From assembly GCA_944325555.1 (NCBI GenBank), contig CALVAN010000016.1, positions 1 to 47,467 of the forward strand: a DNA stretch of 47,467 nucleotides, given 5' to 3'. The position numbers and the translations under genes are program-made. How positions within the stretch are numbered: position 1 is the stretch's first letter; every line of letters begins with the position of its first letter. This stretch comes from Candidatus Gastranaerophilales bacterium (GTDB lineage: Bacteria; Cyanobacteriota; Vampirovibrionia; Gastranaerophilales; Gastranaerophilaceae). Positions 7,719 through 29,040 of this stretch are shown here, one piece after another. The notes under the pieces were generated by a model. The model saw nothing but the letters and a program-made list of their open reading frames with translations. It had not been told where the DNA came from and did no database searches.

Positions 7719-8975
7719 ATGAGTAAAAGAAGAGTTGTTGTTACAGGTTTAGGGATTGTTTCACCTTTCGGTGTCGGTGTGGATAAATTTTGGAACAGTC
7801 TGTTAGAAGGTAAAAGCGGCATTTCCACAATAGAAAATATTTCGCTTGAAGGGCACACGGTACATATTGCCGGTGAAGTTAAAAATTTTAAACCTGAAGA
7901 GTATTTAGACCCAAAAGATGCAAGAAGAATGGATAGATATACTCAGTTTGCAATGGTTGCTGCTGACGAAGCTATCAAAGATTCAGGTATAGTAGCAGGA
8001 GAAAATGTTGACCCGTATAGATATGGTGTTATTGTCGGTTCTGCTGCAGGCGGGTTTGATACGTTTGAAAAACAACACGATATTATTACTGCAAAAGGTC
8101 CTACAAAATGTTCACCTTTCACAGTTCCTATGATTATTGCTGATATGGGTGCCGGCAGAATCTCCATCAAACATGGGGCAAAAGGTGTTAACAAAGCTGT
8201 TGTTACTGCATGTGCAACTTCTGCTCACTCTGTTGGTGACGCCTTCCGTTCAATTCAATGGGATGATGCGGATGTTATAGTTGCCGGCGGTGCTGAAGCT
8301 GTTATCACAAAACTTGGTATCGGAGCTTTTACAAGTGCAAGAACACTTTCAAAACGCAATGATGCACCGCAAAAAGCTTCAAGACCTTATGACAAGGATC
8401 GTGACGGTTTTATTATGTCAGAAGGCGCTGCTGTACTTATTCTTGAAGAATTGGAACACGCTAAGAAACGTGGAGCTAAAATTTATGCAGAGATTGTAGG
8501 CTACGGACAAACTGCTGATGCTTACGATATTGTTGCTCCGGCATCTGACGGAGCCGGTGCGGCTAAGGCAATGGAACTTGCTATTAAAGATGCAGGTGTT
8601 AAACCTGAAGAAGTTAACTATGTCAATGCTCACGGAACAAGTACAGGTTTGGGCGATATTGCCGAATCTCAAGCTATTGCAAGAGTATTTGGTGACCTTA
8701 AAACAAATCCTGATTTGAAAGTCAGCTCTACAAAATCTATGCACGGGCACATGCTTGGTGCAACAGGTGCAGCAGAGTCTATTGTTTGTATCGAAGCTAT
8801 CAATCATGGTATTGTTCCGCCGACTATCAATCTTGATAATCAGGATGAGGCTGTTGCTGATTTAAATTATGTTCCGCATAAACCTCAAAAAGCTGAAGTT
8901 AAGTATGCACTTTCAAATTCTTTCGGATTTGGCGGTCATAATGCTTCTTTGCTGTTTAAAAAATACGAAGCATAA
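7719..8975 (+). CDS. fabF: 3-oxoacyl-ACP synthase II (beta-ketoacyl-ACP synthase)
   Basis: FabF catalyses condensation of malonyl-ACP with acyl-ACP in fatty acid elongation. The 418 residues contain the catalytic triad of the family: C165 in VVTACATSAH, the histidine in VNAHGTSTGLGD, and the histidine in KSMHGHMLGATGA. The glycine-rich C-terminus NSFGFGGHNASLLF is intact. Full length and no disruption. It lies 100 bp downstream of acpP and is closed by a strong terminator. Confidence 0.97.
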   Translation: MSKRRVVVTGLGIVSPFGVGVDKFWNSLLEGKSGISTIENISLEGHTVHIAGEVKNFKPEEYLDPKDARRMDRYTQFAMVAADEAIKDSGIVAGENVDPYRYGVIVGSAAGGFDTFEKQHDIITAKGPTKCSPFTVPMIIADMGAGRISIKHGAKGVNKAVVTACATSAHSVGDAFRSIQWDDADVIVAGGAEAVITKLGIGAFTSARTLSKRNDAPQKASRPYDKDRDGFIMSEGAAVLILEELEHAKKRGAKIYAEIVGYGQTADAYDIVAPASDGAGAAKAMELAIKDAGVKPEEVNYVNAHGTSTGLGDIAESQAIARVFGDLKTNPDLKVSSTKSMHGHMLGATGAAESIVCIEAINHGIVPPTINLDNQDEAVADLNYVPHKPQKAEVKYALSNSFGFGGHNASLLFKKYEA

Positions 8976-8990
8976 TTAATTTACAATATA

Positions 8991-9035
8991 AAACCAAAAG
9001 CCTCTGACTTAGTCAGGGGCTTTTGGTTTAGTGTA
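8991..9035 (+). terminator. Rho-independent terminator after fabF
   Basis: AAACCAAAAGCC (8991-9002) pairs with GGCTTTTGGTTT (9018-9029), and inner bases TGAC/GTCA extend the stem. It is nearly continuous with a 3-4 nt loop. The arms contain T-rich 3' and A-rich 5' parts, so it could work in both directions. Confidence 0.85.
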
Positions 9036-9127
9036 TATATACTGTGCAAATAGTTATAATATCTACACAAAACACAAGATATCAATTTTTATGCTAATAT
9101 ACTATTAAATATAATAGGAAAATATAA

Positions 9128-10054
9128 ATGATAAAATATGCAGTAAATTTAATAAAAAATACTTTTCACCCTTTGCAGGTGGCAGATAGTGCGCACGTTG
9201 AGCATGGGCAGCTTGTGCTTGTGCGTACGGAAAAAGGGGAAGAAGTTGCAAAGGTATTTGTTGTTAATCATAAGATTGCTAAAGCATGGGAAAAAAAGAT
9301 GCCTGAGGCTGTTCCTCTTATCAGGGTAATGGGCAGGCAGGATATGCAAACCTTGCAGGAAATTGAAATTGCACAGGAAGAGGCTTTTAAAATTTGTAAA
9401 GAGCTTGTGGCTCAGCATAATCTTTGTATGAATCTGGTGCAGGCAAAATATACTTTTGATAAACGAAAAATTACTTTTTATTATACTGCTCCTGAAAGAG
9501 TAGATTTTAGAGCACTTTTAAAAGATTTAACACAGGCTTTTAAACGGGTAAGAATTGATCTTAGACATATTGGCGTAAGGGATGAAACTTCTATTATGGA
9601 AGGCAACGGGCTGTGCGGCAGACCGTTTTGCTGCTGTTCTTTTTTAAGAAAGTTTGATTCCATCAATATTAAGTTAGCCAAAGATCAGGGGATGCCGATT
9701 ACTCCGGGAAAAATTTCTGGTACCTGCGGAAGACTATTGTGTTGTTTAAATTATGAGTACAAAAATTATATCGATGCAGCAAAAGACATGCCGCCTATTG
9801 GCAGCGGGGTTATGACTCCTGACGGGCTTGGAAGAGTTTGTTCGCTGCATTTCTTATGTAATGAAATTGCCGTTAAAACAGAGGACGGAAAGATTAAAAA
9901 TTACAAAAAAGAAGAAATTGAAATGGTTGACGGCGACGTTAACATTGATATTGATATTCAGGATACAAATAACCTGTATCAGGAACAATCGGATTACAAC
10001 GTGGACATAAAACAGCTGGAGGACGACAAAAACAGCTCCACCGGCAATGTATAA
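9128..10054 (+). CDS. PSP1 domain protein (YaaT/RicT-like)
   Basis: The 308-residue protein has the PSP1 signature. Cysteine-rich blocks are GNGLCGRPFCCCSFLRKF (about 158-175) and SGTCGRLLCCLNYE (about 197-210). RicT of Bacillus, with RicA and RicF, forms an Fe-S containing complex that stimulates RNase Y-dependent RNA maturation. The cysteines seen here fit that known cluster binding. Nothing nearby encodes RicA or RicF. The next gene starts 27 bp downstream, probably in the same transcript. Confidence 0.85.
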   Translation: MIKYAVNLIKNTFHPLQVADSAHVEHGQLVLVRTEKGEEVAKVFVVNHKIAKAWEKKMPEAVPLIRVMGRQDMQTLQEIEIAQEEAFKICKELVAQHNLCMNLVQAKYTFDKRKITFYYTAPERVDFRALLKDLTQAFKRVRIDLRHIGVRDETSIMEGNGLCGRPFCCCSFLRKFDSINIKLAKDQGMPITPGKISGTCGRLLCCLNYEYKNYIDAAKDMPPIGSGVMTPDGLGRVCSLHFLCNEIAVKTEDGKIKNYKKEEIEMVDGDVNIDIDIQDTNNLYQEQSDYNVDIKQLEDDKNSSTGNV

Positions 10055-10081
10055 TAAGATTACAGTATGTGGGAATAAACT

Positions 10082-11542
10082 ATGAAATCAACAAGAATGC
10101 AATACTGCATAAAATCTGTTCCGAGTGATGATACTTTTCAGATGGAATCACTGCTAAATGAAATGTCTGCTCAGGGGTGGGAACTTTACACAATGCATGA
10201 GGCTGAAGGTGATGAGGGGTTCAATTTTAACTGTATTTTTCTAAAAGAGATCGATGTTGAACAGGAAACTGATGAAGATGATGACAGTGAGTTCGGCTAC
10301 AGAACACCGATGCAAAAAATTATTTCCGCACAAAACGAACCTTACGAAAAATGCGTTGATATCCAGACAAAAATTAAAGACAAAAGAAAAAAAATTAACA
10401 GTATAAAATCCTTGATTGACGAAACAAACGAAACTCAAAGACAGGAACTTAATAATGAAATGTCTAAAACAATCGAGGAGCTTAATGAGCTTAAAAAACA
10501 GCTTCAAAAGACAATTTCTCCTGAGATTATGCTGGATAAAATCGGGGAAGATAAAATAAGAATAAAACTCAGTGAGGAAAATATTGAGCTTGTTAACCCC
10601 GATGCCGAGGCAAATCTTGTTGCGCAAACCGTAAAAGTCCGTCAGAATCTTGCTGAGGAACTCGGCTATATTATCCCTAAAATAAAATTTGAAAATGATG
10701 AAACTCTGCAGGCGAACGAGTTTGAAATAGATGTCAGGGGCGTTTGTGCAGCAAAAGGCGTTGTTTTTTGCGGATACAGAATGTTTTTTAAAGACGATCT
10801 GAAGCTTGAAAAAACTTCAAAAGATATTATCAAAGACACTGATCCTATTACTGGCAAGCAGGTTCTGTGGATTGAGGAAGAAAAAACAAAAGATTTCTGG
10901 GTTCAGGGCTACAAACCCGAGGAGGTTATTGCACGTATTTTGGAGTATGTCTGCATAAAAAATGTGGATGAGATTTTTGACTACAACGATATTAACAACT
11001 ATATTGAAATAGTCAGTGAAAACAATCTTTACCTTATCGAAAACATTATTCCGGACTTTGTTTCGGTTGCGGAATTAAAGTATATTTTAACAAGCCTGAT
11101 TAAGGAAAGAGTTTCTATCAAGGATATTGTTTATATTTTTGAAAAAATCAATGACTTTGCCGATGAAGAAACAAAAGAGGATTTGCTTAGCCGTGTAAGG
11201 CATTCGCTTTCACGCCAGATTTCAAAAAGCATTGCGAATGAAAACAATGTTATTCAGGCTTTTGAACTATCCGAGGAAACAGTAAAATACCTTGCATCAA
11301 AAGTTTCGGGCAAAAGCAGCGTTATTCGAATAGATAATACAAAAATGCAGACGGTTGTTAACAATATCTATAAAGTTATCGACAAACACAACATAAACGC
11401 TGATGAGATAGTTGTTATTGTTCCTATGGAAATACGTCAGGTGACAAGCGTTGTGCTCTCAAGACTAATGCCGTCCGTTAAGGTTGTTGCAAGAGAAGAA
11501 ATAGCAAACGGCTATACTACTGAAATATATGACAGAGTATAA
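10082..11542 (+). CDS. DUF4177-like domain fused to an FlhA C-terminal (FHIPEP-like) cytoplasmic domain
   Basis: The 486-residue protein has no transmembrane segment. Residues 1-60 (MQYCIKSV, MSAQGWELYTM, FNCIFLK) look like a DUF4177 module. Residues about 90-140 are a charged coiled coil. From about 150 the sequence follows the order of the FlhA export-gate cytoplasmic domain: LVNPDAEANLVAQTVKVRQN, LAEELGYIIPKIKFENDETL, ANEFEIDVRGVCAAKG, VLWIEEEKTKDFWVQGYK, then LIENIIPDFVSVAELKYILT and SLIKERVSIKDIVYIFE, LLSRVRHSLSRQISKSIA. I infer a soluble FlhA-like scaffold outside a flagellar or type III setting, since no export genes are nearby. It is co-oriented with the PSP1 gene. Confidence 0.7.
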   Translation: MKSTRMQYCIKSVPSDDTFQMESLLNEMSAQGWELYTMHEAEGDEGFNFNCIFLKEIDVEQETDEDDDSEFGYRTPMQKIISAQNEPYEKCVDIQTKIKDKRKKINSIKSLIDETNETQRQELNNEMSKTIEELNELKKQLQKTISPEIMLDKIGEDKIRIKLSEENIELVNPDAEANLVAQTVKVRQNLAEELGYIIPKIKFENDETLQANEFEIDVRGVCAAKGVVFCGYRMFFKDDLKLEKTSKDIIKDTDPITGKQVLWIEEEKTKDFWVQGYKPEEVIARILEYVCIKNVDEIFDYNDINNYIEIVSENNLYLIENIIPDFVSVAELKYILTSLIKERVSIKDIVYIFEKINDFADEETKEDLLSRVRHSLSRQISKSIANENNVIQAFELSEETVKYLASKVSGKSSVIRIDNTKMQTVVNNIYKVIDKHNINADEIVVIVPMEIRQVTSVVLSRLMPSVKVVAREEIANGYTTEIYDRV

Positions 11543-12856: not shown

Positions 12857-12908
12857 ACACAATAAGTCGGAAACGGTGTTCCATTTCCAAACTTCCGAGT
12901 TATTGTGT
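12857..12908 (+). promoter_or_regulatory. Long inverted repeat overlapping the start of the first transposase
   Basis: A 16-bp arm at 12857-12872 (ACACAATAAGTCGGAA) pairs with 12893-12908, with one G/G mismatch. The loop is 20 nt. The right arm ends on the GTG start candidate and 5 bp before the ATG at 12913. No Shine-Dalgarno is seen in front of either start. It may be an operator for autoregulation or an RNA hairpin that limits translation of the transposase. Confidence 0.6.
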
Positions 12909-12912
12909 GAGT

Positions 12913-14898
12913 ATGGAAAAATACATAAATATAAATGAAGTAGCAAAGATAAAAGGGTTAAATAGTAACCGTTCAATCAGACTTGCAATACAAAAAGGTA
13001 AATATATCGCAAGAGAAGTTGAGGTTAGAGGTGGTAAATCCTATGAAATACTTTATTCAAGTTTAGAGGCAGAAGTTCAAGAAAAACTTGAAGATGAAGA
13101 AATCAGAGGAACATCTCTTGTTCCAATTTTAAACCAAGAACCAACTTTTATTTCTGAAAAGGCAAAAATGACAGCCTTAGCAAGAGTTGATATTTTACAC
13201 GCCTTGTTAAATATTCGTGGTAAATATTCAACTAAAAAAGAGGCTGATTCAGTATTCTTGGATTTATATAATTCAGGAATGTTACTTCCTAAAGTATATA
13301 ATTTTATAGGTTCAATAAGTAAGACAACACTTTATCAATGGCTACATCTATATAAAGAAAATAGTAGTTATAAATCTCTATTGCCGGGTTATAAAGTTAG
13401 AAAACAAGGAGAATATAATTCAATATTAAATAACGAAATGAAGGAAGTATTTTTCAAATATCTTATGCATCCTAATAAATTTAGTATTGGAAAAGCAATA
13501 AATCTTACGAAGCATATTTTAGAAAAAAGAGGATACGAGAATATTCCTTGTGATTTAACTTTTAGAAGATACGCAGAACATTATAAAAAACATAATTTTG
13601 CACAATGGGTTTTATTTAGAGAAGGTGAAAAAGCATACCACGATAAAGTGGAAGCATATATTGAAAGGGATATTTCAAAATTGGAAGTTGGAGATGTACT
13701 TATTGCTGATGGGCATACTTTAAACTTTCAAGTAATTAACCCTTTTACAGGAAAGCCGACCAGAGCAACTTTGGTCGGCTTTTTAGATTGGAAATCAACA
13801 GCACTGGTTGGATATGAAATTATGATGAGCGAAAACACTCAATGTATAGCTTCGGCATTAAGAAATGCAATCATTAATTTAGGTATGATTCCGAAGGTAG
13901 TTTACCAAGATAATGGTAGGGCATTCAAAGCAAAATATTTCCAATCCTGTGATTTTGATGAAGAAGGGTTTAATGGAGTATATGCAAATCTCGGAATAAA
14001 ATCAGTATTTGCAAAACCATACAATGCAAGAGCAAAAGTAATAGAGAGGTTCTTTAGAGAATTTCAAGAAGAATTTGAAAAAATGATGCCAAGCTACATT
14101 GGAACAAGTATTGAAAACAAGCCTGCGTGGATGAAACGAGGAGAGAAACTTCATAGAGAGATGCATAAAAAACTCACTAATAATTACATCCCAACTGTAC
14201 AAGAATTAATAAAATACATTGATTGTTACCTAGATTTTCACAATTCAAAACCTTGTCCGAACGCTCCTCAAATATCAATTAAACAATGTTTAAACAGTGT
14301 TCAACGCCATCAAATCGATAAAAATATTTTAAATGATTTAATGATGAAAACTGAAGTTAGAACTATTAATCGAAATGGAATTACATTTCTTGGACTTCAT
14401 TACAGAAGCGATTCAATTTTAGGTTTAAGAGATTCTGTTTATATTAGATACAGCTTATTTGATTTAACTAAAATACACGTTTATTCAACTAAAGGCGAGT
14501 TTTTATGTGTTGCAAGACAAGTTGAAAAAGTTCACCCAATGGCAAATCATTTAGGCACTGTAAAAGATATGGAGCAATTCAAACAACAAATTCAAAAGCA
14601 ACAAAGACAATTTAAAAAAGCTCAAAAAGAATTCTTGAAATACTTCCCTAAAGAACAGGCTGAAGTTATTGAGATTGAACCGCAAGAAAGGATTATGGCT
14701 GAGCAACCAATAATTGAAAAACCAAAACAGGAAAGAAAATTAAGCCCTCGTGAACTTCAGATGTATAGACCTATTTTTAATACAGATTATGAAAAATACG
14801 AGTGGTTAATGACAAATGGATGCACTAATCCTGAAGATAGAAAATGGCTTACAAACTACATTCGAAGTGATGAATACTACAATTTATATGGAGATTAA
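12913..14898 (+). CDS. MuA/TnsB-like DDE transposase (module 1)
   Basis: The protein is 661 residues from ATG 12913, or 663 from GTG 12907. The numbering below counts from the GTG. An N-terminal MuA-type DNA-binding HTH (VAKIKGLNSNRSIRLAIQKG) is followed by a second HTH (SISKTTLYQWLHLYKE). The catalytic core has D268 (LIADGHTLNF), D335 (VVYQDNGRAF) and E380 (KVIERFFREF), close to the spacing in Mu transposase. A Mu-type beta-barrel and a charged C-terminal tail follow. It catalyses strand transfer with the AAA partner encoded 3 bp downstream. It is intact. It is clearly different in sequence from the second transposase at 16820, so it is not a recent duplicate. Confidence 0.9.
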   Translation: MEKYININEVAKIKGLNSNRSIRLAIQKGKYIAREVEVRGGKSYEILYSSLEAEVQEKLEDEEIRGTSLVPILNQEPTFISEKAKMTALARVDILHALLNIRGKYSTKKEADSVFLDLYNSGMLLPKVYNFIGSISKTTLYQWLHLYKENSSYKSLLPGYKVRKQGEYNSILNNEMKEVFFKYLMHPNKFSIGKAINLTKHILEKRGYENIPCDLTFRRYAEHYKKHNFAQWVLFREGEKAYHDKVEAYIERDISKLEVGDVLIADGHTLNFQVINPFTGKPTRATLVGFLDWKSTALVGYEIMMSENTQCIASALRNAIINLGMIPKVVYQDNGRAFKAKYFQSCDFDEEGFNGVYANLGIKSVFAKPYNARAKVIERFFREFQEEFEKMMPSYIGTSIENKPAWMKRGEKLHREMHKKLTNNYIPTVQELIKYIDCYLDFHNSKPCPNAPQISIKQCLNSVQRHQIDKNILNDLMMKTEVRTINRNGITFLGLHYRSDSILGLRDSVYIRYSLFDLTKIHVYSTKGEFLCVARQVEKVHPMANHLGTVKDMEQFKQQIQKQQRQFKKAQKEFLKYFPKEQAEVIEIEPQERIMAEQPIIEKPKQERKLSPRELQMYRPIFNTDYEKYEWLMTNGCTNPEDRKWLTNYIRSDEYYNLYGD

Positions 14899-14901
14899 AT
14901 T

Positions 14902-15633
14902 ATGAAAAAAACTTTTATTAGGACAAAAAATGTTAAACAATTTGTATCGTTGATGGATGAATTACAAAAAGTGCCACCTAATATTCCTAAGATGGCATTA
15001 GTTTATGGAGAACATGGGCTAGGAAAATCGCAGACGATTCAGTGGTGGGCTGATAAAAACGATTCGGTTTATGTAAGAGCAACACAAGGAATGACAAGCA
15101 GATGGCTTTTATCTGAAATCGCAGAGGAGCTTGGAGAAGAGGCTTTTTATCATTCCCAAGAAACTTTTACATTAATTGAGAATAATTTAAGGCTTAATAA
15201 CAAGGTAATTATTGTTGATGAGGTTGATTATTTAATCGATAAAAGTATTATTGAAACCTTAAGAGATTTACACGATAAAACGGGTTGCCCTGTGGTTCTA
15301 GTTGGGATGGGAGCAGTAGATAAGAAACTTGCACGTTATCCACATTTAATGGATCGGATTTATAAAAAGCTGAAATTCGAAAAATTTAATTCAGATGATA
15401 TTAAAGAAATTCTCACAGAATTAACTGATTTGAAGTTTAAGGACGATGCTATTGAATACCTTGCGACTCGTACAAACCAATTCAGACAATTAGTTAAACT
15501 TATCAATAGAATTGAAAAATTAATGAAAACCAATCAAATTGAAGAATTAGACGAATACACAATGAAAGGATTATTAAATGAAAGAACGAATATTAAAACT
15601 ATGCAAACGTTTAAACAAGTTCTCGTTGGATGA
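14902..15633 (+). CDS. MuB/TnsC-like AAA+ ATPase (module 1)
   Basis: The 243-residue ATPase is expected to choose targets and activate the upstream transposase. Walker A is GEHGLGKS (36-43) and Walker B is VIIVDEVDYL (102-111). A sensor-like VLVGMGAVD follows, with the RYPHLMDRIYK region typical of this family. It lacks the N-terminal HTH of MuB that the second ATPase has, so it looks more like TniB/TnsC or IS21-type helper proteins. It sits 3 bp after the transposase and overlaps the next gene by 56 bp. Confidence 0.88.
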   Translation: MKKTFIRTKNVKQFVSLMDELQKVPPNIPKMALVYGEHGLGKSQTIQWWADKNDSVYVRATQGMTSRWLLSEIAEELGEEAFYHSQETFTLIENNLRLNNKVIIVDEVDYLIDKSIIETLRDLHDKTGCPVVLVGMGAVDKKLARYPHLMDRIYKKLKFEKFNSDDIKEILTELTDLKFKDDAIEYLATRTNQFRQLVKLINRIEKLMKTNQIEELDEYTMKGLLNERTNIKTMQTFKQVLVG

Positions 15634-16616: not shown

Positions 16617-16823
16617 ATGAACAATTGTGCATTTTGCCAAAAGAAAATTTTATTAAAGTTTATTATGAGTGTTTATAATCTTAGAGCTATTGATATAGCA
16701 AGAGAAATAAACATCTCAGACAGCCTTGTTCGTAAACATATCTCAGGAGACAGAGAGTGTCCTTCAGTTGATGCATACATTATTAAGAAGTGCTTCGGAA
16801 TGAATGTTCAGGAGATTCTATGA
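16617..16823 (+). CDS. Ner/Cro-like small HTH regulator
   Basis: The 68-residue protein has an HTH: LRAIDIAREINISDSLVRKHISGDRECPS (about 22-50). In Mu, the small HTH protein Ner is the first early gene before A and represses early transcription. The order here (HTH, A, B) is the same. A CxxC lies near the N-terminus (CAFC). Its stop overlaps the A start (ATGA). The role is inferred from size, motif and position. Confidence 0.6.
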   Translation: MNNCAFCQKKILLKFIMSVYNLRAIDIAREINISDSLVRKHISGDRECPSVDAYIIKKCFGMNVQEIL

Positions 16824-18778
16824 AGCAAACTTTTAATGAAAAACTGAATATTCCCAACTGGATTTCATTAGATGAAGTTTGTAAAATTCTTTCATTAAAA
16901 GAGAAAACTGTAAAAAATAAGTGCAGAAATGCTGAATTAACCTATAAAGTTGTACGAAATGGAAAACAACTTGAGTATTATATTAGTTCAACATCTATTC
17001 CTGAAAATTTATTAAATTTATATTTTACAGAAACTAGAACAAAATCTGATGCTTATAGTGATGTTCCAGAGTGGGCTAAAGCACAGGCAGACAAATATCT
17101 TACAATAATAACAGCTTGTAGCGGATTAAGAGGACAACAATTAAAAGATTACATTAATACTTGGAATAATGTAAATCCTGATTTTAAGACATCATATTCA
17201 AGTTTGATGGATATGAAAAAACGTTATTTATTATATGGATTCAATGGTCTTTTAGCAAAATATGGACACAAAAAATATAAGATTCAAATTCCAGATATCT
17301 ATTATCAATATTTTAAAAATATTTATTTAGTAGAGGGTGCTCCATCTTTACAAAGTTGTTGGGAACAGACGTTTGGCTTTGCAAGAAAAAATGAAGATGT
17401 AAATAAAGAAACATTCCCAAGCGGAATTACGTTTAAGCGAAAATTAAAAGAAGAAATGCCTGAGCAAAGCATTTATTTAGCACGTTATGGCTATTCTGCT
17501 TGGAACACCAAATACGGTAACTATATTGATAGAAATTATGACAACATAATTTGTGGCAAGGCTTGGGTTTCTGATCATGCACAAATAGATGTAGCTTGTC
17601 TTTCGCCTGAAGGAGATGTTATTTTCCCTTGGGTTACAGCTTGGAGAGACTATAAATCTGGCAAATGGTTAGGTTGGTTGCTGCAATATGGACATCCAAA
17701 TTCTGACCATATTTTTCAAACTTTTTATTATGCTGCGAAGGCATATGGCTTACCCGATTCGGTCATTATAGATAATGGAAAGGATTATCGTTCTAAAGAT
17801 TTTGCCGGAGGACGAAGTGTTATGTCAGTTGATAAAACACAAGTAAAAACTCGTTCAATGTTAGCGGAGTTGGACGTTAAAGTTCACTTTGCATTGCCAT
17901 ATAATGCTCAAACAAAGCCAATAGAACGTGATTTCTTAAAAATAAAAGAATTATTATCAAAGCATAGTGTTGGATATAGAGGTGGCAATGTTGTTGAAAG
18001 ACCTGAAAAACTATTAGGTGAAATTAAAGCCGGCAAAATTATGCCATTTGAAAAATTTAAGACAATTTTTGATGACTTTATTGTAAACATACTAAATAAA
18101 CGCCCATCTACAGGGAAAAATCTTCAAGGGATGTCACCTGATGAATTGTTCAATAAAGAATTTACAGAAAAGAGAGTTGCTTCAAATGATGCTCTAAAAC
18201 TTTTCTGCATGAGAACATCAAGGACATTTACAATAGGTCGAAACGGAATTAAAGACAATCAATTAGGTATTACTTATTGGTCAGATTGGATGATTTCAAA
18301 AACAAGTCTTAAAGTTTATCTTCGCAGAGATATCGAGAATTATAAAGAGGCTTGGGTCTTTAGAGCAGATAATGATAAGTTTGTAGGAAAAACAACGGCA
18401 GTAAGAGCAGTCGCAGCATTATATGCTAATGAGGTTTCAAAAGAAGAATTTAAGGAAGCAATGGCAAATAAAAAACGTAATTATAAGATTGCCAAAGCAT
18501 ATATCAAACAAATTCAACAAATACCATTGGAAGAACAATGCGAAAACTACAAAGCCGCATATGCAAGCGTTGAAAAGGAAGCAAAACCTAAAATTACTAA
18601 ATTTGCAAATACAAATATGGACAAAGCTATTCGTAAAAATAAAGAGATGGAAGCCTTTGGGCAATATGATTTATCAATATTCCTTAATGAAGAGAAAAAG
18701 GAAGAAAAGCCACTTTATTTATACGAGACAGACAAAATTCTAGCAGAAAGAGCAAAAGGAGTTGCAAATGGATATTAG
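16820..18778 (+). CDS. MuA-like DDE transposase (module 2)
   Basis: The 652-residue transposase is read from ATG 16820, which has AGGAG upstream and overlaps the previous stop. The N-terminal HTH is WISLDEVCKILSLKEKTVKN. The catalytic residues are D252 (WVSDHAQIDV), D318 (VIIDNGKDYR) and E369 (TKPIERDFLK). A Mu-type C-terminal barrel and a basic tail follow. In the known Mu pathway this protein cuts the phage ends and performs replicative transposition. It overlaps the B-like gene, and the downstream gene order (B, small TM, gp16) shows it is the transposase of the prophage proper. Confidence 0.92.
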   Translation: MKQTFNEKLNIPNWISLDEVCKILSLKEKTVKNKCRNAELTYKVVRNGKQLEYYISSTSIPENLLNLYFTETRTKSDAYSDVPEWAKAQADKYLTIITACSGLRGQQLKDYINTWNNVNPDFKTSYSSLMDMKKRYLLYGFNGLLAKYGHKKYKIQIPDIYYQYFKNIYLVEGAPSLQSCWEQTFGFARKNEDVNKETFPSGITFKRKLKEEMPEQSIYLARYGYSAWNTKYGNYIDRNYDNIICGKAWVSDHAQIDVACLSPEGDVIFPWVTAWRDYKSGKWLGWLLQYGHPNSDHIFQTFYYAAKAYGLPDSVIIDNGKDYRSKDFAGGRSVMSVDKTQVKTRSMLAELDVKVHFALPYNAQTKPIERDFLKIKELLSKHSVGYRGGNVVERPEKLLGEIKAGKIMPFEKFKTIFDDFIVNILNKRPSTGKNLQGMSPDELFNKEFTEKRVASNDALKLFCMRTSRTFTIGRNGIKDNQLGITYWSDWMISKTSLKVYLRRDIENYKEAWVFRADNDKFVGKTTAVRAVAALYANEVSKEEFKEAMANKKRNYKIAKAYIKQIQQIPLEEQCENYKAAYASVEKEAKPKITKFANTNMDKAIRKNKEMEAFGQYDLSIFLNEEKKEEKPLYLYETDKILAERAKGVANGY

Positions 18779-19646
18779 AGCAGAATTAAAAGAATTAATG
18801 GAATCAAAAAACTATAGTATTGCTTTTGTTGCAACTGCTACAGGTCTTGCTAAATCAACAATAAGTATGTGGATTAATGACAATTATAACGGTAAAAATG
18901 ACAAAATCACTGATGCTATAAATAATTTCATTAATCGTGAACGTGAACGTGTTAGTAATAATGACCTCCCTTTTGTAGATATTTCAACTTCTCGTTATAT
19001 AAACGAGATTGGTAGATTGTGTCATACACAAGGTAAAATCGGTGTTTGCGTTGGATGTGCCGGACTTGGAAAAACAGTTGCGGTAAAAAGATATACCAAA
19101 ATGTTTATGGATTCAATTTTAATTGAAAGTGATTCAGGATATACAGCCAAATCACTTCTTAAAGAGGTTCACAGACGTTTAGGACTAGCGGGCAAAGGCT
19201 CTGTATATGATTTGATGGACGAGGTTGTAAGAAAGTTAAACCAATCAGGCAGACTTTTGATTATTGATGAAGCTGAAAATCTTCCATACAGAGCATTGGA
19301 AATTGCTCGTAGAATCCACGATAAAACTGGCGTTGGAGTTCTTTTAGTAGGAAGGTCTATTCTACTTGAGAACTTGAAAGGATACAACAATCAGTATGAC
19401 CAACTCTATTCAAGAGTTAAATATACCAAAATACTCAATAGAATCCAACTTGTAGATATTCAAGACATTCTTAGAGCAGTTGGTCAAAACCCTGATTTAG
19501 CAGATGTATATCTTCAGTATTCAGATGGAAATACAAGAAGATTAGAACACTTAATAACACACAGCATTAGCATTGCTCGTTTTAACGACAAGGCTGAGGT
19601 CGATAGTGCTGTGATCCAAGAAACTTCCAAATTATTAATGGCATAA
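18768..19646 (+). CDS. MuB-like transposition target protein (AAA+ ATPase)
   Basis: The 292-residue protein starts at ATG 18768 with AAGGAG 6 bp before it; a TTG at 18762 is the alternative. Residues 1-50 are the MuB-type HTH (YSIAFVATATGLAKSTISMW). The AAA domain shows Walker A GCAGLGKT (96-103) and Walker B LLIIDEAENL (163-172), with the VLLVGRSILLENL sensor region. MuB binds DNA as ATP filaments and delivers targets to MuA. The gene overlaps the transposase stop. Confidence 0.92.
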   Translation: MDIRAELKELMESKNYSIAFVATATGLAKSTISMWINDNYNGKNDKITDAINNFINRERERVSNNDLPFVDISTSRYINEIGRLCHTQGKIGVCVGCAGLGKTVAVKRYTKMFMDSILIESDSGYTAKSLLKEVHRRLGLAGKGSVYDLMDEVVRKLNQSGRLLIIDEAENLPYRALEIARRIHDKTGVGVLLVGRSILLENLKGYNNQYDQLYSRVKYTKILNRIQLVDIQDILRAVGQNPDLADVYLQYSDGNTRRLEHLITHSISIARFNDKAEVDSAVIQETSKLLMA

Positions 19647-19658
19647 GGAGATATTAAA

Positions 19659-19823
19659 ATGCACGAAGGTAAGAAATTCCGACCCGACACTTCATTATGG
19701 TTAAACATCTTTTTAATAGCTCTTGCCATTTTTATTTTGGGAGTGCAAATCGGTATTAAACATGGACGAGAATTACAACTCGACGATATGAGAATTAAAT
19801 ATGGCTACGACTTTTCAGATTAG
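19659..19823 (+). CDS. Small single-pass membrane protein in the early operon
   Basis: The 54-residue product has one hydrophobic helix (LWLNIFLIALAIFILGVQIG, about 13-32) and a charged C-terminus. AAGGAG lies 10 bp upstream of ATG 19659. It overlaps the gp16-like gene by 23 bp in another frame. Function is unknown. A position between B and gp16 corresponds to the small semi-essential early genes of Mu. Confidence 0.65.
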   Translation: MHEGKKFRPDTSLWLNIFLIALAIFILGVQIGIKHGRELQLDDMRIKYGYDFSD

Positions 19824-20250
19824 AAAAATTCACACATTAAAAAACATATTAGGTATGGATGATGATTTATACCGAGAAATGCTCATGTCCTTTGATGTTC
19901 AAAGCTCAAAGAATCTAACATTTACAGAAGCCGGTATTTTTATAGAGATTCTCGAAGAAAAAGCCATCGCATTAAATAAATGGGTAAAACGAACTAAAAA
20001 ATATGAGAATTTAAATCGTGATGAGGAAATGGCTACAAATGCTCAATTAAGAATGATAGAAGGTTTATGGAGAGATATTTGCTACTACGACACTGATGAA
20101 TATGCAAAAAAATCTCTTAGAAAATTTTTAAGATCAAAATTTAAAGTGGATGATGTTATGTTTCTGACAAAAATAAAGGCAATAAAAGTCATTCAGGCAA
20201 TAACAGCAATCAAAAAAAAATTAGAAAAAAGTGCGGCCACACTTAAGTAG
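19801..20250 (+). CDS. Mu gp16-like protein (DUF1018)
   Basis: The 149 residues show the gp16 pattern: IRKIHTLKNILGMDDDLYREMLMSF at the start, then NAQLRMIEGLWRDI and LRKFLRSKFKVDDVMFLTKIKAIKVIQAI. The family is found in Mu-like phages between B and mor; its molecular role is not established. Length is typical. It belongs to the early operon. Confidence 0.85.
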   Translation: MATTFQIRKIHTLKNILGMDDDLYREMLMSFDVQSSKNLTFTEAGIFIEILEEKAIALNKWVKRTKKYENLNRDEEMATNAQLRMIEGLWRDICYYDTDEYAKKSLRKFLRSKFKVDDVMFLTKIKAIKVIQAITAIKKKLEKSAATLK

Positions 20251-20276: not shown

Positions 20277-20597
20277 ATGTTAACAATGGAAAAAACAAAT
20301 GAAGAAATGTCAACAATGAGAGACAATCAGTTCTTTGGTGATATTGCACAGGAAGAAAATAATAAAAAAGAATGTGCAATGATGGGCTTAATTAAAAATC
20401 AAATTATTGTTCTTAATGAAGAACTTGATGTTGCGTACAACAGACTAGGACAAGTTGCAACAGATGAAGAGAATTGGAGTGGCAAGTATGAGAGAAAAAT
20501 GGCTTGCAAAATACTTCAAGGGCAAATTGCAATTCTTACAAAGTTGGAAAAGGATATGGAAAACATGTTGACACCAACTAGTATGTCATCTTGTTAA
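20277..20597 (+). CDS. Early-operon hypothetical protein
   Basis: The 106-residue acidic and helical protein is not recognised. It starts at ATG 20277 after AAAGGAG. Its C-terminal half (KNQIIVLNEELDVAYNRLGQ, KILQGQIAILTKLEKDMENM) is predicted coiled coil. It lies between the gp16-like gene and the ribozyme plus Mor-like gene. Confidence 0.6.
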   Translation: MLTMEKTNEEMSTMRDNQFFGDIAQEENNKKECAMMGLIKNQIIVLNEELDVAYNRLGQVATDEENWSGKYERKMACKILQGQIAILTKLEKDMENMLTPTSMSSC

Positions 20598-20606
20598 TAA
20601 TAAACA

Positions 20607-20671
20607 GGTCGAAACGGTCGGCTAACGGTGCAAGCTGACCGTCTTAGAGTAAGGCTCTAACTGATGAGACC
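20607..20671 (+). ncRNA. Type II hammerhead self-cleaving ribozyme
   Basis: Every conserved core base of a hammerhead is present. Stem II strand GGTC (20607-20610) precedes GAAA (20611-20614). Stem III is ACGGTC (20614-20619) with GACCGT (20637-20642), extended by GGCT/AGCT. The cleavage site is GTC with C17 at 20643. Stem I is TTAGAG (20644-20649) with CTCTAA (20655-20660) and loop TAAGG. The core CTGATGA is at 20661-20667. Stem II closes with GACC (20668-20671). The open end is at stem II, so it is type II. It lies between two early genes, 24 bp before the Mor-like start, and cleavage would separate the mor message from the upstream early transcript. Stem II is only 4 bp, which may reduce activity. 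Confidence 0.88.
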
Positions 20672-20694
20672 ACTATAAATAATAAGAGGAGATA

Positions 20695-21000
20695 ATGGAA
20701 TATAAACCTTGGATGGATTATATAAGACCAGAAGATATGCCAAATGATGATTTAAAGACAATTGCTGAATCAGCTGGCATACGATCAGCTTTGGCTTTAA
20801 TTTTTCTAACTCCAGGGTTAACTGTATCAATACCGAGAAACGCATTTACAGAGGTAAAGAAAAGATACATTATAAGTCAGTATGATGGTAGAAAATATAC
20901 AATAAATCGACTTGCATTAGAGTGCGGTTTTTCTCAAAGATACATTTATAAAATAATCGAAAAACATCTTCAAAATAAATCAACAATCCCTAAAGAATAA
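20695..21000 (+). CDS. mor: Mor/C-family transcriptional activator
   Basis: The 101-residue protein matches the Mor family of Mu: an N-terminal dimerisation helix, then GLTVSIPRNAFTEVKKRYIISQYDG and a C-terminal HTH (YTINRLALECGFSQRYIYKIIEKH). Mor/C proteins activate middle or late promoters lacking a good -35. It is the last early gene, after AGAGGAG, with the ribozyme in its leader and a terminator 20 bp after its stop. Expected targets are the promoters of the two divergent late arms. Confidence 0.85.
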   Translation: MEYKPWMDYIRPEDMPNDDLKTIAESAGIRSALALIFLTPGLTVSIPRNAFTEVKKRYIISQYDGRKYTINRLALECGFSQRYIYKIIEKHLQNKSTIPKE

Positions 21001-21020: not shown

Positions 21021-21057
21021 ACTCTAATGCATTTTTCATCTGCATTAGAGTTTTTTT
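21021..21057 (+). terminator. Rho-independent terminator of the early operon
   Basis: ACTCTAATGCA (21021-21031) and TGCATTAGAGT (21041-21051) form an 11-bp perfect stem with a 9-nt loop, followed by T7. It separates the plus-strand early operon from the convergent minus-strand late genes. Confidence 0.92.
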
Positions 21058-23477: not shown

Positions 23478-24032
23478 TTAAGAATCGCTCATATCAATAC
23501 TATATGGGCTGATTTCTTTTAAGTTATTTAATTTCGCTATTCCATGTGGAACAACACTATATCCACCTTTTGGAGATTTTACTATACTTGGGTGGTCTCT
23601 ATATGCTGTACTAACCAAATTTTCTCTTGCTTGATCGTAGGCTTTTCGTGCATTTTGAGGGCTCTTATATACGGTTCTTACACCATTTTCACCCTTATAT
23701 TGGTACGTCCTTGGAATATCTTGTACTTTTTTACTTGCTAATTTTGAAGCTTCTGTTTTATATTTTTTAGACTGTGCTTTTGCTTCATCGGCTTTTGCCT
23801 GTGCCTCTTTTGCGTATTGTGTATATTTTTCCGCCAATTCTTTTTTACCGGCTTGTTTATACTTTCTTGCAATAGCTTGTTCAGAGGCAGCTCTTCTTGA
23901 GAATTCGTAGGCATCATCATCGTATTTATATGATTTATTTAACAAGTAATTTAATTCGTTCTCAGTTTTGGCATTAATAGATTTACTTGCTCCGCCTCCG
24001 CCTCTGCTACCGCCTGAGCCACGTCCTCCCAT
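23478..24032 (-). CDS. MGGRGSGG-type phage protein, smaller copy
   Basis: The 184 residues begin MGGRGSGGSRGGGGASKS, continue with a long charged coiled coil (YKYDDDAYEFSRRAASEQAI ... KKYKTEASKLASKK) and end with a compact region (SVVPHGIAKLNNLKEISPYS). The same start is found in the neighbouring gene and in many phage proteins of unknown function. The glycine-rich start may mark a packaging or processing signal; that is inference. Confidence 0.6.
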   Translation of the reverse strand: MGGRGSGGSRGGGGASKSINAKTENELNYLLNKSYKYDDDAYEFSRRAASEQAIARKYKQAGKKELAEKYTQYAKEAQAKADEAKAQSKKYKTEASKLASKKVQDIPRTYQYKGENGVRTVYKSPQNARKAYDQARENLVSTAYRDHPSIVKSPKGGYSVVPHGIAKLNNLKEISPYSIDMSDS

Positions 24033-24035
24033 ATA

Positions 24036-24686
24036 TTAATCTCCTTTCATTTTCGGAATATCCACACCAATCCAGTTCTTCTCTTCTTGCGACCAAGAAA
24101 GTTTTCTTCCTGATTTTTTGGCTAATCGATTAACTACTTTGTCGATTTGAGCACGACTTGATTTGTGCAGGACTTGCCAATCATAATCTTCCTCACCTCT
24201 TGCATCAGAAGGATTTTTCCATTTTCCTAGGCTGCGAACCGATACGTTTATAAAGTCTCCGTAATCTTCAACCCTAAAGTCGCTACGTCTAATGTATCCA
24301 TCAGTTGAAACTTTACTTATTAATTCATCTTTTAAATTAGAAACTGTGCTGTCCATAGACATTTTGACTTTTGGTGTTCTTGGTTTCTTTTCAGGTTTTA
24401 CACCATTTTTTAGATTTTCTGCACGTTTAGCACGAGCTTTAGCAAGAGCATCAAGACGTTTTTGTTTTAAATCTGCGGCTTTTTTAGCATCAAGTTCATC
24501 TATTCGTTTTCTTATTGCTTCCATCTCTCGAACTCGTTGGTCTATACTATAAGCAGGATTCCCTGAAATACTGTTATACAACCTTATAAGTTCGTTTTTA
24601 TCGGTAATACCTTCCCCGATATTTTTAGGGGCTTTTGAAGCAGCACCTCCTCCACCTTTTCCGCCTCCTGAACCACGTCCTCCCAT
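24036..24686 (-). CDS. MGGRGSGG-type phage protein, larger copy
   Basis: The 216 residues begin MGGRGSGGGKGGGGAASK and have a lysine-rich coiled coil (about 55-105). The C-terminal domain contains FRVEDYGDFINVSVRSLGKW and DYDWQVLHKSSRAQIDKVVN. Only the first dozen residues resemble the gene at 23478. It lies 3 bp from it and 3 bp from the DUF4417 gene, so the three are one transcription unit. Confidence 0.6.
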   Translation of the reverse strand: MGGRGSGGGKGGGGAASKAPKNIGEGITDKNELIRLYNSISGNPAYSIDQRVREMEAIRKRIDELDAKKAADLKQKRLDALAKARAKRAENLKNGVKPEKKPRTPKVKMSMDSTVSNLKDELISKVSTDGYIRRSDFRVEDYGDFINVSVRSLGKWKNPSDARGEEDYDWQVLHKSSRAQIDKVVNRLAKKSGRKLSWSQEEKNWIGVDIPKMKGD

Positions 24687-26391: not shown

Positions 26392-26892
26392 TTATTTATA
26401 ACGAATGCAGATATGAACTACTTGTGATGGGGGTTGAACGGTTGTTGATTTTCCATAAATCGTATTATTTGGAGCTGAGGATGTAACTTTAGCTGCTCCA
26501 TTTCGATTCTCTCCATATGACCAAACGCAATCAGTATCATTTCCTGATTTATCAGTCCTATTCATTGTTATTGTATGAGTATGAGTTGGTAAGCCAGCTT
26601 CAATTAAAGCTCCAACATTTTCTCCCGGTTGTAAAAATCTTTTTGTAATATTGTAATCAGGGATTCTGAATTCATCAGATTTCTCTCCGCCTTTGTTGAA
26701 TTTACTTCCAATTACAGAATATAGTAGAGAGTAATCAGATTTTTTAAGAATATAACCATCACAAGGCAAACAATTATGATGTGTATAATCAATTGGATAA
26801 ATTACTAATGACCCTATAAATTCTGGAGTTAGTAAATTCCGATTATATTGGTTTTGATTTAATTGATTTGTTTTAAGTGAAACAATTCCCAT
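26392..26892 (-). CDS. Tail collar-domain protein, copy 1
   Basis: The 166 residues start MGIVSLKTNQLNQNQYNRNL and contain the collar block (DCDGYILKKSDYSLLYSVIG-type: CLPCDGYILKKSDYSLLYSV, then DEFRIPDYNITKRFLQPGEN). A variable middle follows, with THTHTITMNRTDKSGNDTD. The conserved end is IYGKSTTVQPPSQVVHICIR. Proteins with this domain form receptor-contacting tips of tails. It is the last of five tandem paralogues in transcription order, and the middle differs in every copy. Confidence 0.75.
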   Translation of the reverse strand: MGIVSLKTNQLNQNQYNRNLLTPEFIGSLVIYPIDYTHHNCLPCDGYILKKSDYSLLYSVIGSKFNKGGEKSDEFRIPDYNITKRFLQPGENVGALIEAGLPTHTHTITMNRTDKSGNDTDCVWSYGENRNGAAKVTSSAPNNTIYGKSTTVQPPSQVVHICIRYK

Positions 26893-26899
26893 TAGTACC

Positions 26900-27400
26900 T
26901 CAAATGTATTTGATACAGATATGAACTATTTGTGATGGAGGTTGAACAGTTGTTGATTTCCCATAAACAGCATTACTTGCAGAAGCCTTGCTTGTTGTTA
27001 ACTTTAATTGATGTCCATAATCAGGGTTTCCACGTCCCTCTTCAACTATTCCATTTGCATTCCAGTAAAGAGCCGTAACCGTATGTGCATGGTCTGGGAT
27101 ACCTGCTTCGACTTGTTTCCCAACGGTTGTTCCCGGCTGTAAAAATCTTTTTGTTATGTTGTAATCAGGGATTCTAAATTCATCTTCCTGTTCAGTTCCT
27201 TTGTTAAATTTTTTCCCAATAATTGAGTAGAGTTGTTTATAATCAGTAATTTTTAAAACAAAACCCTCGCACGAAAGACAGTCACTCGGAGTATAATCAA
27301 TAGGAAATGTGTATAAAGCTCCTATCTTTTCTCGTGTTTGAGTATTTGTAGAATATCCATTTTGATTCAATTGATTTGTTGTTAAATTCTTGATTCCCAT
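26900..27400 (-). CDS. Tail collar-domain protein, copy 2
   Basis: The 166 residues begin MGIKNLTTNQLNQNGYSTNT. The collar block reads CLSCEGFVLKITDYKQLYSI and EFRIPDYNITKRFLQPGTTV. The variable centre is HAHTVTALYWNANGIVEEGR. The end is AVYGKSTTVQPPSQIVHICI. It is closest to copy 1 in length and N-terminus. Function is as for the other collar copies: host contact or tail-tip decoration, inferred from the domain and position. Confidence 0.75.
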   Translation of the reverse strand: MGIKNLTTNQLNQNGYSTNTQTREKIGALYTFPIDYTPSDCLSCEGFVLKITDYKQLYSIIGKKFNKGTEQEDEFRIPDYNITKRFLQPGTTVGKQVEAGIPDHAHTVTALYWNANGIVEEGRGNPDYGHQLKLTTSKASASNAVYGKSTTVQPPSQIVHICIKYI

Positions 27401-27405
27401 AATTT

Positions 27406-27924
27406 TTATTTATATTTAATGCAAATGTGAACTATTTGAGATGGTGGCTGAACCGTTGTTGAAGAGCCATATATTATGGATGAACGAGAAGCATCAAAAT
27501 TTGATATGCTATACCATTCACCACCACCATGAATATTCTGACTACCGGAAGTTTTGGCAAATGCACCATATGTATTAGACTGATATGGGCTTACAATTGT
27601 ATTTCCACCTGTTATATTCGGCAATCCTGCTGCTACTTTTATACCCACATCATTTCCCGGTTGTAAAAATCTTTTTGTGATATTGTAATCAGGGATTCTA
27701 AATTCATCCTCAGTTTCATCGCCAGTATTAAATGTTGTTCCTATTACAGCATAAAGTTTTTTATAATCTTCGATTTTTAAAACATAGCCATCACAAGCTA
27801 AGCAGTCCTCTGGAACGATATTGACTGGGGCTGTGTATAAAAATCCTATTTTATTTTTAGTTAAAAGATTGAAATTATAACCATTTTGGTTGATTTCATT
27901 TGTGATTAAATTAATTATTTTCAT
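27406..27924 (-). CDS. Tail collar-domain protein, copy 3
   Basis: The 172 residues begin MKIINLITNEINQNGYNFNL, and the first half (LLTKNKIGFLYTAPVNIVPE) is almost the same as copy 4. The middle and end (GLPNITGGNTI, FDASRSSIIYG) are like copy 5 instead. This makes it a mosaic of its two neighbours. It ends with SSTTVQPPSQIVHICIKYK. Confidence 0.75.
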   Translation of the reverse strand: MKIINLITNEINQNGYNFNLLTKNKIGFLYTAPVNIVPEDCLACDGYVLKIEDYKKLYAVIGTTFNTGDETEDEFRIPDYNITKRFLQPGNDVGIKVAAGLPNITGGNTIVSPYQSNTYGAFAKTSGSQNIHGGGEWYSISNFDASRSSIIYGSSTTVQPPSQIVHICIKYK

Positions 27925-27930
27925 TATTTT

Positions 27931-28506
27931 TTACTTGTATTTGATGCAGATATGAACGATTTGAGATGGTGGTTGAACAGTTGTTGACTTTCCATAAATC
28001 CCATTTGACGCATTTCCTGTTGTCATAGTATGTGTATGAGCACCAGCACTAGCTGCTGTCAACGTCCGAGTCCCATTAGAACCTCCAGCTGCCGTTATAA
28101 TTAATGAACCAGGGTCGCCATCATCATAATTTGATCCTGTATAAGAAACCTTGTGTGTGTGAGCACCATTGCTAGACGTTGTTCCACTGTGATTATGTTG
28201 TGGCAGACCAGCTTCAATATATTCTCCAACATCTTCTCCTGGCTGTAAGAATCTTTTTGTAATGTTGTAATCAGGAATTCTAAATTCTTCAGAGGACTCT
28301 TCACCAGTGTTAAATTTTTTTCCAATTACACTATAAAGTTTCTTATAATCTTCAATCCTTAGTACATAACCATCACAAGCCAAACAATCTTCTGGAACAA
28401 TATTGACTGGAGCAATGTATAAAAAACCAATTTTATTTTTTGTTAAAAGATTAAAATTATAACCATTTTGATTTATTTCATTTGTAAAAAGACTAAGTAT
28501 TTCCAT
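27931..28506 (-). CDS. Tail collar-domain protein, copy 4
   Basis: At 191 residues this is the longest copy. It shares the first half with copy 3 (NEINQNGYNFNLLTKNKIGF). The variable middle is long and His/Thr/Gly-rich: HNHSGTTSSNGAHTHKVSYT and AGAHTHTMTTGNASNG. GAHTH repeats are typical of metal-binding collagen-like or short-tail-fibre tips. The end is YGKSTTVQPPSQIVHICIKYK-like, shared with copies 1-3. Confidence 0.75.
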   Translation of the reverse strand: MEILSLFTNEINQNGYNFNLLTKNKIGFLYIAPVNIVPEDCLACDGYVLRIEDYKKLYSVIGKKFNTGEESSEEFRIPDYNITKRFLQPGEDVGEYIEAGLPQHNHSGTTSSNGAHTHKVSYTGSNYDDGDPGSLIITAAGGSNGTRTLTAASAGAHTHTMTTGNASNGIYGKSTTVQPPSQIVHICIKYK

Positions 28507-28509
28507 AAT

Positions 28510-29040
28510 TTATTTATATTTAATGCAAATGTGTACAATTTGTGATGAGGGCTGGACTGTTGGACTTTTTCCATATACATTTGAACTTCTGGAAGCATCT
28601 ATTTTTATTGAATATGTAGCATTATTATATGCACCTTCATTTCTGGTATGATTTGCACCAACTATGTATAGAGCTCCGTTAGATACTCCATTCCCAAAAT
28701 TCTGAGCGTGAATAGGTGCTGTACCCGTAATATTTGGTAAACCTGCTTCTATTTTTATTCCAACATTTTCGCCGGGTTGTAAAAATTTTCCTGTTACATT
28801 GTAATCGGGTATCCTAAATTTACCTGACTCATCTCCTTCATGATTAAACTTTGTGCCAATAACTTTGTATAAATCCAAATAATCAAGAATATCCAGTAAG
28901 TAACCATCACAAGAGAGGCAATCGTCAGGGGTGTAATCGATAGGGTAGATGAATAAAGCTCCTATTCTTTCTTTAGTTAGAGTATTTTTGTGATAGCCGT
29001 TTTGGTTGATTAACGGGGAACTCAATTCCTCAATTTTCAC
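28510..29040 (-). CDS. Tail collar-domain protein, copy 5
   Basis: The 176 residues use a GTG start at 29040 with AAAGGA upstream, overlapping the previous gene by 11 bp. It begins MKIEELSSPLINQNGYHKNT and is the most diverged copy: NVTGKFLQPG replaces NITKRFLQPG, and the end has SPTVQPSSQIVHICIKYK. The middle has GLPNITGTAPIHAQNFG and IDASRSSNVYGKS. It is the first copy transcribed and may be the ancestral one. Confidence 0.75.
   Translation of the reverse strand: MKIEELSSPLINQNGYHKNTLTKERIGALFIYPIDYTPDDCLSCDGYLLDILDYLDLYKVIGTKFNHEGDESGKFRIPDYNVTGKFLQPGENVGIKIEAGLPNITGTAPIHAQNFGNGVSNGALYIVGANHTRNEGAYNNATYSIKIDASRSSNVYGKSPTVQPSSQIVHICIKYK

What the first reader, a model, noticed from the sequence alone, without database searches (positions are those of the whole stretch)
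20607..20671. Complete type II hammerhead ribozyme in the leader of a Mor-like activator
All core bases (CTGATGA, GAAA, A15.1-U16.1, C17 and G10.1-C11.1 pairing) and three stems are present in a 97-bp gap between two early genes. Self-cleavage after 20643 would split the early transcript and leave the mor message with a short stem I leader, a way to uncouple the late switch from early expression. Hammerheads are known in phages, but I know of none described as controlling a Mu-type Mor gene.
Basis: partly seen in the sequence, partly recalled or inferred. Interest (0 to 1): 0.85.

Follow-up and report, generated by a model that had tools for sequence, protein, structure and literature searches.

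The report
Self-cutting RNA before phage mor gene
A prophage of an uncultured gut bacterium carries a small self-cutting RNA (a hammerhead ribozyme) exactly between its early genes and the gene for its presumed late-gene switch; relatives keep the ribozyme at that spot, so it almost certainly splits the early message there, although phages are already known to carry such ribozymes.

Summary
Window 20607-20671 is a complete type II hammerhead, with cleavage expected after C 20643, in the 97-bp gap between a small early gene and a Mor-family gene (Pfam Mor, E 7e-6). It is not chance. Forty-three distinct relatives keep the core; all three stems covary (99.3% of cells paired, 12 of 20 pairs with compensatory changes, 0 of 500 shuffles as good). 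The window matches a model built from these relatives at 94.8 bits, but Rfam Hammerhead_II at only 22.4 (cut-off 37).

In 288 genomes of the host family (Gastranaerophilales-type gut bacteria) 63 copies were found: 42 directly before mor, 13 one gene further upstream. Mor genes in the gemA operon context have it (40 of 42 distinct); 28 Mor-family genes elsewhere do not. It starts at the upstream stop codon and ends about 23 nt before the mor start. Best explanation: it cuts the early mRNA between cistrons, leaving hairpin-capped ends and a separate mor message. Cutting and its regulatory effect were not tested.

Hammerheads in Mu-like early operons are already known as a class; sampled other Mu-like phages carry theirs further upstream. 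New here is the conserved position directly before mor. New member of a known kind.

The parts
20607..20671 (+). type II hammerhead ribozyme (complete core and three stems)
20606..20606 (+). A immediately 5' of stem II, invariant in 43 of 43 distinct relatives; probable tertiary contact with loop I (inferred)
20614..20642 (+). stem III hairpin (10 bp); would become the 3' end hairpin of the upstream product
   Evidence: sequence; covariation
20643..20643 (+). C17; cleavage expected after this base
   Evidence: hammerhead numbering on the sequence
20644..20660 (+). stem I hairpin; would become the base-paired 5' end of the mor message
   Evidence: sequence; covariation
20661..20667 (+). CUGAUGA core strand
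   Evidence: CUGANGA in all 43 relatives (N is U or C)
20685..20691 (+). Shine-Dalgarno-like AGAGGAG of mor
   Evidence: sequence
20695..21000 (+). Mor-family transcription activator gene, 101 aa
   Evidence: Pfam PF08765
20277..20597 (+). small ORF of unknown function just upstream; its stop codon ends 9 nt before stem II
19801..20250 (+). gemA-like early gene
   Evidence: Pfam PF06252
16790..19646 (+). Mu-type transposase A (16790-18778) and AAA target-DNA activator B-like gene (18762-19646) of the same early operon
   Evidence: Pfam
21022..21057 (+). 10-bp inverted repeat followed by seven T, an intrinsic-terminator-like end of the early transcript (9-nt loop, outside the limit of the scan)
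   Evidence: sequence

Best explanation
A type II hammerhead ribozyme is transcribed as part of the phage's early polycistronic RNA (transposase A, B, gemA, small ORF, mor). Once RNA polymerase has passed 20671 it folds and cuts its own strand after C 20643. The upstream message then ends in the 10-bp stem III hairpin with a 2',3'-cyclic phosphate. The mor message starts with a 5'-OH and the stem I hairpin, 51 nt before its start codon. The likely purpose is to cut the early RNA between cistrons, so that the early genes and the late-switch gene mor have separate message lifetimes and translation, with hairpins shielding the new ends. Shown here: the ribozyme's structure, its selection, its conserved place and its spacing. 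Inferred: cleavage in the cell, protected ends and the effect on mor.
For: Core conserved and all three stems covarying in 43 distinct relatives, including stem II, which appears as GGTC/GACC, GACC/GGTC and GAGC/GCTC. Of 63 model hits in 288 genomes of the family, 42 lie 13-139 nt before mor and 13 lie 379-407 nt before it; of the other 8, 1 is a second-copy type at a contig end, 5 sit in other phage early operons and 2 are chance matches in coding sequence. In dereplicated Mor loci, 40 of 42 with gemA or the small ORF upstream have it, and 0 of 28 in other contexts do. The upstream stop codon ends -1 to 11 nt before stem II and the start codon lies 14-32 nt after, so it fits between two cistrons without touching either coding sequence. 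No + strand promoter-like site lies between 18926 and 20845 and a terminator-like repeat follows mor, so mor is probably read from upstream. Precedents (PMC3088659): tandem hammerheads cut polycistronic prophage RNA in vitro, those at ardA also in E. coli; in haloviruses HF1/HF2 a hammerhead 13 nt before a helicase start coincides within 3 nt with a mapped 5' end.
Against: No cleavage or RNA data. Two sister Mor loci in the gemA context (L140, L147) have no hammerhead, one having only a plain hairpin, so it is dispensable. Phage Mu has gemA and mor overlapping by 4 nt with no ribozyme between them. Folding shows no consistent change in ribosome-site accessibility on cleavage. Most HHR-free Mor genes form one clade, so the context correlation is few evolutionary events.
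Confidence: 0.72

Rival explanations
1. Regulated or timed switch: cleavage is conditional, for example blocked while ribosomes terminate at the upstream stop codon (whose position overlaps the stem II strand) or responsive to a factor, and so gates mor expression at the early-to-late switch.
For: The stop codon lies -1 to 11 nt from stem II in nearly all relatives and mostly -1 to 3 nt in 182 hammerheads with the same stem II in viral contigs; a terminating ribosome would cover that strand. The downstream gene is a late-switch activator.
Against: Minimal spacing is equally expected from genome compactness. No aptamer-like domain: loop III is short and variable, down to UUUAU in L144. Most such ribozymes in other phages precede unrelated genes.
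Confidence: 0.13
2. The ribozyme mainly serves the upstream cistron, as a self-made 3' end (hairpin plus cyclic phosphate) that stabilises the early message, and mor is only the next gene.
For: It abuts the upstream stop codon more tightly than the mor start; stem III is 10 bp.
Against: When an extra gene is inserted upstream of mor, a ribozyme still directly precedes mor in every two-ribozyme locus, so the position relative to mor is kept.
Confidence: 0.1
3. A passive or selfish module: near-identical hammerhead copies act as sites of recombination that let gene-plus-ribozyme cassettes be gained or lost, with no function in expression.
For: A gene-plus-ribozyme unit is present or absent between related phages.
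Against: The copies keep a catalytic core with compensatory stem changes rather than primary sequence, so ribozyme structure is under selection.
Confidence: 0.04
4. Chance or decayed motif.
For: Rfam score is below its cut-off.
Confidence: 0.01

Closest known systems
Type II hammerhead ribozymes of phages and prophages (Perreault et al. 2011, PMC3088659; Rfam RF02276)
   Same: Same core, same permutation (stems I and III closed, stem II open), same setting between phage genes, often near others of its kind.
   Different: Stem II is 4 bp instead of the 2-bp Rfam consensus and there is no loop I to 3'-tail pairing (mean run 2.38 against 2.37 for shuffled pairs; GC-stem-II phage hammerheads 3.57 against 2.91); scores below the Rfam cut-off. 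Hammerheads with the same GGTC/GACC stem II are common in other phages.
Hammerhead/twister association with Mu-like phage genes (stated in PMC10085705, citing work not held here)
   Same: Ribozyme in the early operon of a Mu-like phage.
   Different: In the sampled Vibrio, Shewanella, Microcystis-phage and gut-phage Mor loci the hammerhead lies several hundred bases before mor; where gemA is annotated, it is upstream of gemA. Here it is directly before mor.
HHphage hammerhead of haloviruses HF1/HF2 (PMC3088659)
   Same: Hammerhead just before an early gene's start codon; mapped 5' end near the cleavage site there.
   Different: Archaeal virus, helicase gene, core with an insertion found only in hammerheads from salterns.
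Phage Mu gemA-mor junction
   Same: Same gene order (gemA then mor).
   Different: In Mu the genes overlap by 4 nt and no ribozyme is found in 8000-11500.

Membership tests
Type II hammerhead ribozyme | CUGANGA and GAAA core strands | tested here: met
Type II hammerhead ribozyme | three helices with A15.1-U16.1, 10.1-11.1 pair and H at position 17 | tested here: met
Type II hammerhead ribozyme | stems I and III closed by loops, stem II open | tested here: met
Type II hammerhead ribozyme | Rfam RF02276 gathering score | tested here: not met
   22.4 bits against 37. This is a curated score threshold, not a structural feature; a lineage model gives 94.8 bits
Type II hammerhead ribozyme | loop I to 3'-tail pseudoknot (in most known members, not all) | tested here: not met
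   an invariant A 5' of stem II and a conserved U-N-A-K-G loop I suggest another contact
Type II hammerhead ribozyme | self-cleavage | not testable with these tools
   needs RNA
Mor transcription activator (downstream gene) | Pfam PF08765 above its cut-off | tested here: met
   26.4 bits against 24.9; gemA upstream as in Mu
Mor transcription activator (downstream gene) | activation of a middle or late promoter | not testable with these tools
   needs experiment

The most novel reading that the evidence does not exclude
A self-cleaving ribozyme fixed in front of the late-switch activator of a whole lineage of Mu-like phages acts as a timing device: it folds only after the ribosome leaves the upstream stop codon, so translation of the early genes sets when the mor message is released and the phage commits to late expression.
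Probability: 0.12. Interest if true: 0.75.

Novelty: new member of a known kind. Interest (0 to 1): 0.42.

Why it matters
What bacterial hammerheads do is an open question, partly because the genes next to them are described as not constant (PMC3088659). Here one gene junction keeps the ribozyme across a prophage lineage down to about 39% Mor identity, the junction has natural ribozyme-free counterparts (L140, L147, Mu), and spacing to stop and start codons is tight. That gives a defined system in which a single core mutation could show whether phage ribozymes set mRNA lifetimes or the lytic switch.

Tried and rejected
Chance motif: rejected. Hidden ribosome-binding site released by cleavage: folding of longer and shorter uncut RNAs disagrees (0.31 against 0.65 unpaired; cut 0.65), so not supported. 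Usual loop I to tail pseudoknot: not found. Lineage-private ribozyme subtype: rejected, because GGTC/GACC hammerheads are common in other phages. General rule that phage hammerheads precede mor: rejected; of 118 hammerheads in the first viral sample none was followed directly by a Mor gene detectable with this lineage's profile, and in the second sample only five contigs were, two of them carrying the same sequence. Other ribozyme classes in the window: none over Rfam cut-offs. tblastn of this Mor against named phages: no match. Rfam RF02276 search of the own genome found nothing at E 10, a sensitivity limit, since the lineage model finds the one copy. Papers on Gastranaerophilales and ribozymes: none.

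Full report
What is there. The sequence at 20607-20671 reads GGTC-GAA-[ACGGTCGGCT...AGCTGACCGT]-C-[TTAGAG...CTCTAA]-CTGATGA-GACC. This is a type II hammerhead: stem II open at the outside, stems III and I closed. The minimum-energy fold is exactly this structure. Rfam's Hammerhead_II model finds it at E 0.012 but at 22.4 bits, below the curated 37, so a default Rfam scan misses it. The gap it fills (20598-20694) lies between a small ORF (20277-20597) and an ORF that Pfam places in the Mor family (E 7.2e-6, 26.4 bits against a cut-off of 24.9). Upstream on the same strand are gemA, a B-like AAA protein and a Mu-type transposase. A terminator-like repeat follows mor at 21022-21057, and no + strand promoter-like site was found between 18926 and 20845 (such scans are weak evidence).

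Host and relatives. The nearest Mor relatives are mostly in assemblies labelled Candidatus Gastranaerophilales, Galligastranaerophilus, Adamsella, Scatousia and Melainabacteria, so the window is most likely a prophage contig of that gut lineage. That is inference, because the genome itself is unnamed. In the loci fetched around Mor relatives, a hammerhead lies a few tens of bases upstream of mor down to about 39% amino-acid identity of Mor.

Selection on structure. I aligned 43 distinct copies. With the hammerhead structure written in, 99.3% of cells pair (shuffled 86.3%), 12 of 20 pairs have changes on both sides, and the covariation score is 0.378 against 0.128 for shuffles and at most 0.069 for slid partners; no shuffle of 500 reaches any observed measure. 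The shuffles ignore relatedness, but the slid controls keep it. All three helices have compensatory changes, including stem II (GGTC/GACC, GACC/GGTC, GAGC/GCTC). The core stays intact; C17 becomes A in one copy (L198), which hammerheads tolerate (general knowledge), and a few copies have one U between CUGAUGA and stem II. The A just 5' of stem II is present in all 43 while the base before it varies freely, and loop I is conserved as U-N-A-K-G. Together with the absence of the usual loop I to tail pairing this suggests a different tertiary contact, which is inferred.

Specific placement. A covariance model of the 43 was run over 288 genomes of the family. It found 63 matches in 43 genomes. Forty-two lie 13-139 nt before a Mor gene and 13 lie 379-407 nt before it, one cistron further upstream. 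Of the remaining eight, one is a copy of the second type at a contig end, five sit between early genes of other phages, and two are chance matches inside coding sequence. In a sample of 386 genomes of the phylum all matches fell in the same family except one in another family of the same order (strict filters may lose weak matches). After removing identical Mor proteins, 40 of 42 Mor genes with gemA or the small ORF upstream have the ribozyme (one with a large insert in stem I, one partly masked by N and counted as present). The two without are sisters (L140, L147). None of 28 Mor-family genes in other contexts have it. Twenty-two of those 28 form one clade, so this contrast rests on few evolutionary events.

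Geometry. The stop codon of the upstream cistron ends between -1 and +11 nt from stem II in 51 of 52 measurable copies, and the next start codon lies 14-32 nt after it, most often 23. The same compact geometry holds for 182 hammerheads with the same stem II in viral contigs, where the upstream gap is mostly -1 to 3 nt. The ribozyme thus occupies precisely the space between a stop codon and a ribosome-binding site. Where related phages carry an extra gene before mor, it comes with an extra ribozyme, and one still directly precedes mor.

Mechanism. Cleavage at 20643/20644 would leave the upstream message ending in a 10-bp hairpin with a cyclic phosphate and a mor message starting with 5'-OH at a base-paired 17-nt hairpin. 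From general knowledge of bacterial mRNA decay such ends are poor substrates for end-dependent nucleases. I take the function to be segmentation of the early transcript, giving mor its own message stability and translation. I found no consistent sign that cleavage unmasks the mor ribosome site. Translation-timed cleavage is possible from the geometry but compactness explains the geometry equally well.

Known background. Type II hammerheads in prophages, often flanking single genes, are established. Some were shown to cut polycistronic RNA in vitro and, at ardA, in E. coli, and the HF1/HF2 copy lies 13 nt before a helicase start with a mapped transcript end within 3 nt (PMC3088659). A later paper states that the strongest associations of bacterial hammerheads and twisters are with genes of Mu-like phages (PMC10085705). 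I confirmed that class in other hosts: of 15 Mor loci related to Mu's, five carry a hammerhead above the Rfam cut-off, but hundreds of bases before mor; in the annotated Vibrio and Shewanella records it is upstream of gemA, while the gut-phage record is unannotated. Two of the five, L431 and L434, have near-identical scores and may be related phages. In Mu itself gemA and mor overlap and there is no ribozyme in the region. I found no report of a hammerhead conserved directly before mor, but the two most relevant papers were not held.

Verdict. It is a new member of a known kind, with an unusually clear and conserved gene association that makes the function of phage hammerheads testable.

Noticed in passing
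12907-15633 and 16790-19646: Two Mu-type transposase plus AAA ATPase pairs lie in tandem; the first pair (Mu-transpos_C, TniB-like) may belong to a second transposable element next to the prophage.
   Followed up: no
26392-29040, - strand: Five tandem paralogous ORFs of about 166-191 aa that share N- and C-terminal motifs, resembling a repeated tail-collar or fibre gene.
   Followed up: no
L212 and L225, upstream of their Mor genes: Both share an inserted structured stretch (CTTGGATTATTCGGG...CCGAAAATCCGCAA) just before CTGATGAG; in L212 it enlarges stem I of the hammerhead. No Rfam match.
   Followed up: partly
L139:1361-1480 (same in L174): Hammerhead with an insert of about 55 nt containing its own hairpin in loop III, core intact.
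   Followed up: no
L140, - strand, before mor (same in L176): In place of the hammerhead there is a plain 10-bp hairpin GTGCAGGGAA-AA-TTCCCTGCAC, a natural comparison for the role of the ribozyme.
   Followed up: partly
182 GGTC/GACC hammerheads in viral contigs: Phage hammerheads with this stem II mostly start within -1 to 3 nt of an upstream stop codon, whose last A is often the conserved A before stem II.
   Followed up: partly
23478-24686, - strand: Two adjacent ORFs both begin MGGRGSGG, suggesting a duplicated minor phage protein.
   Followed up: no
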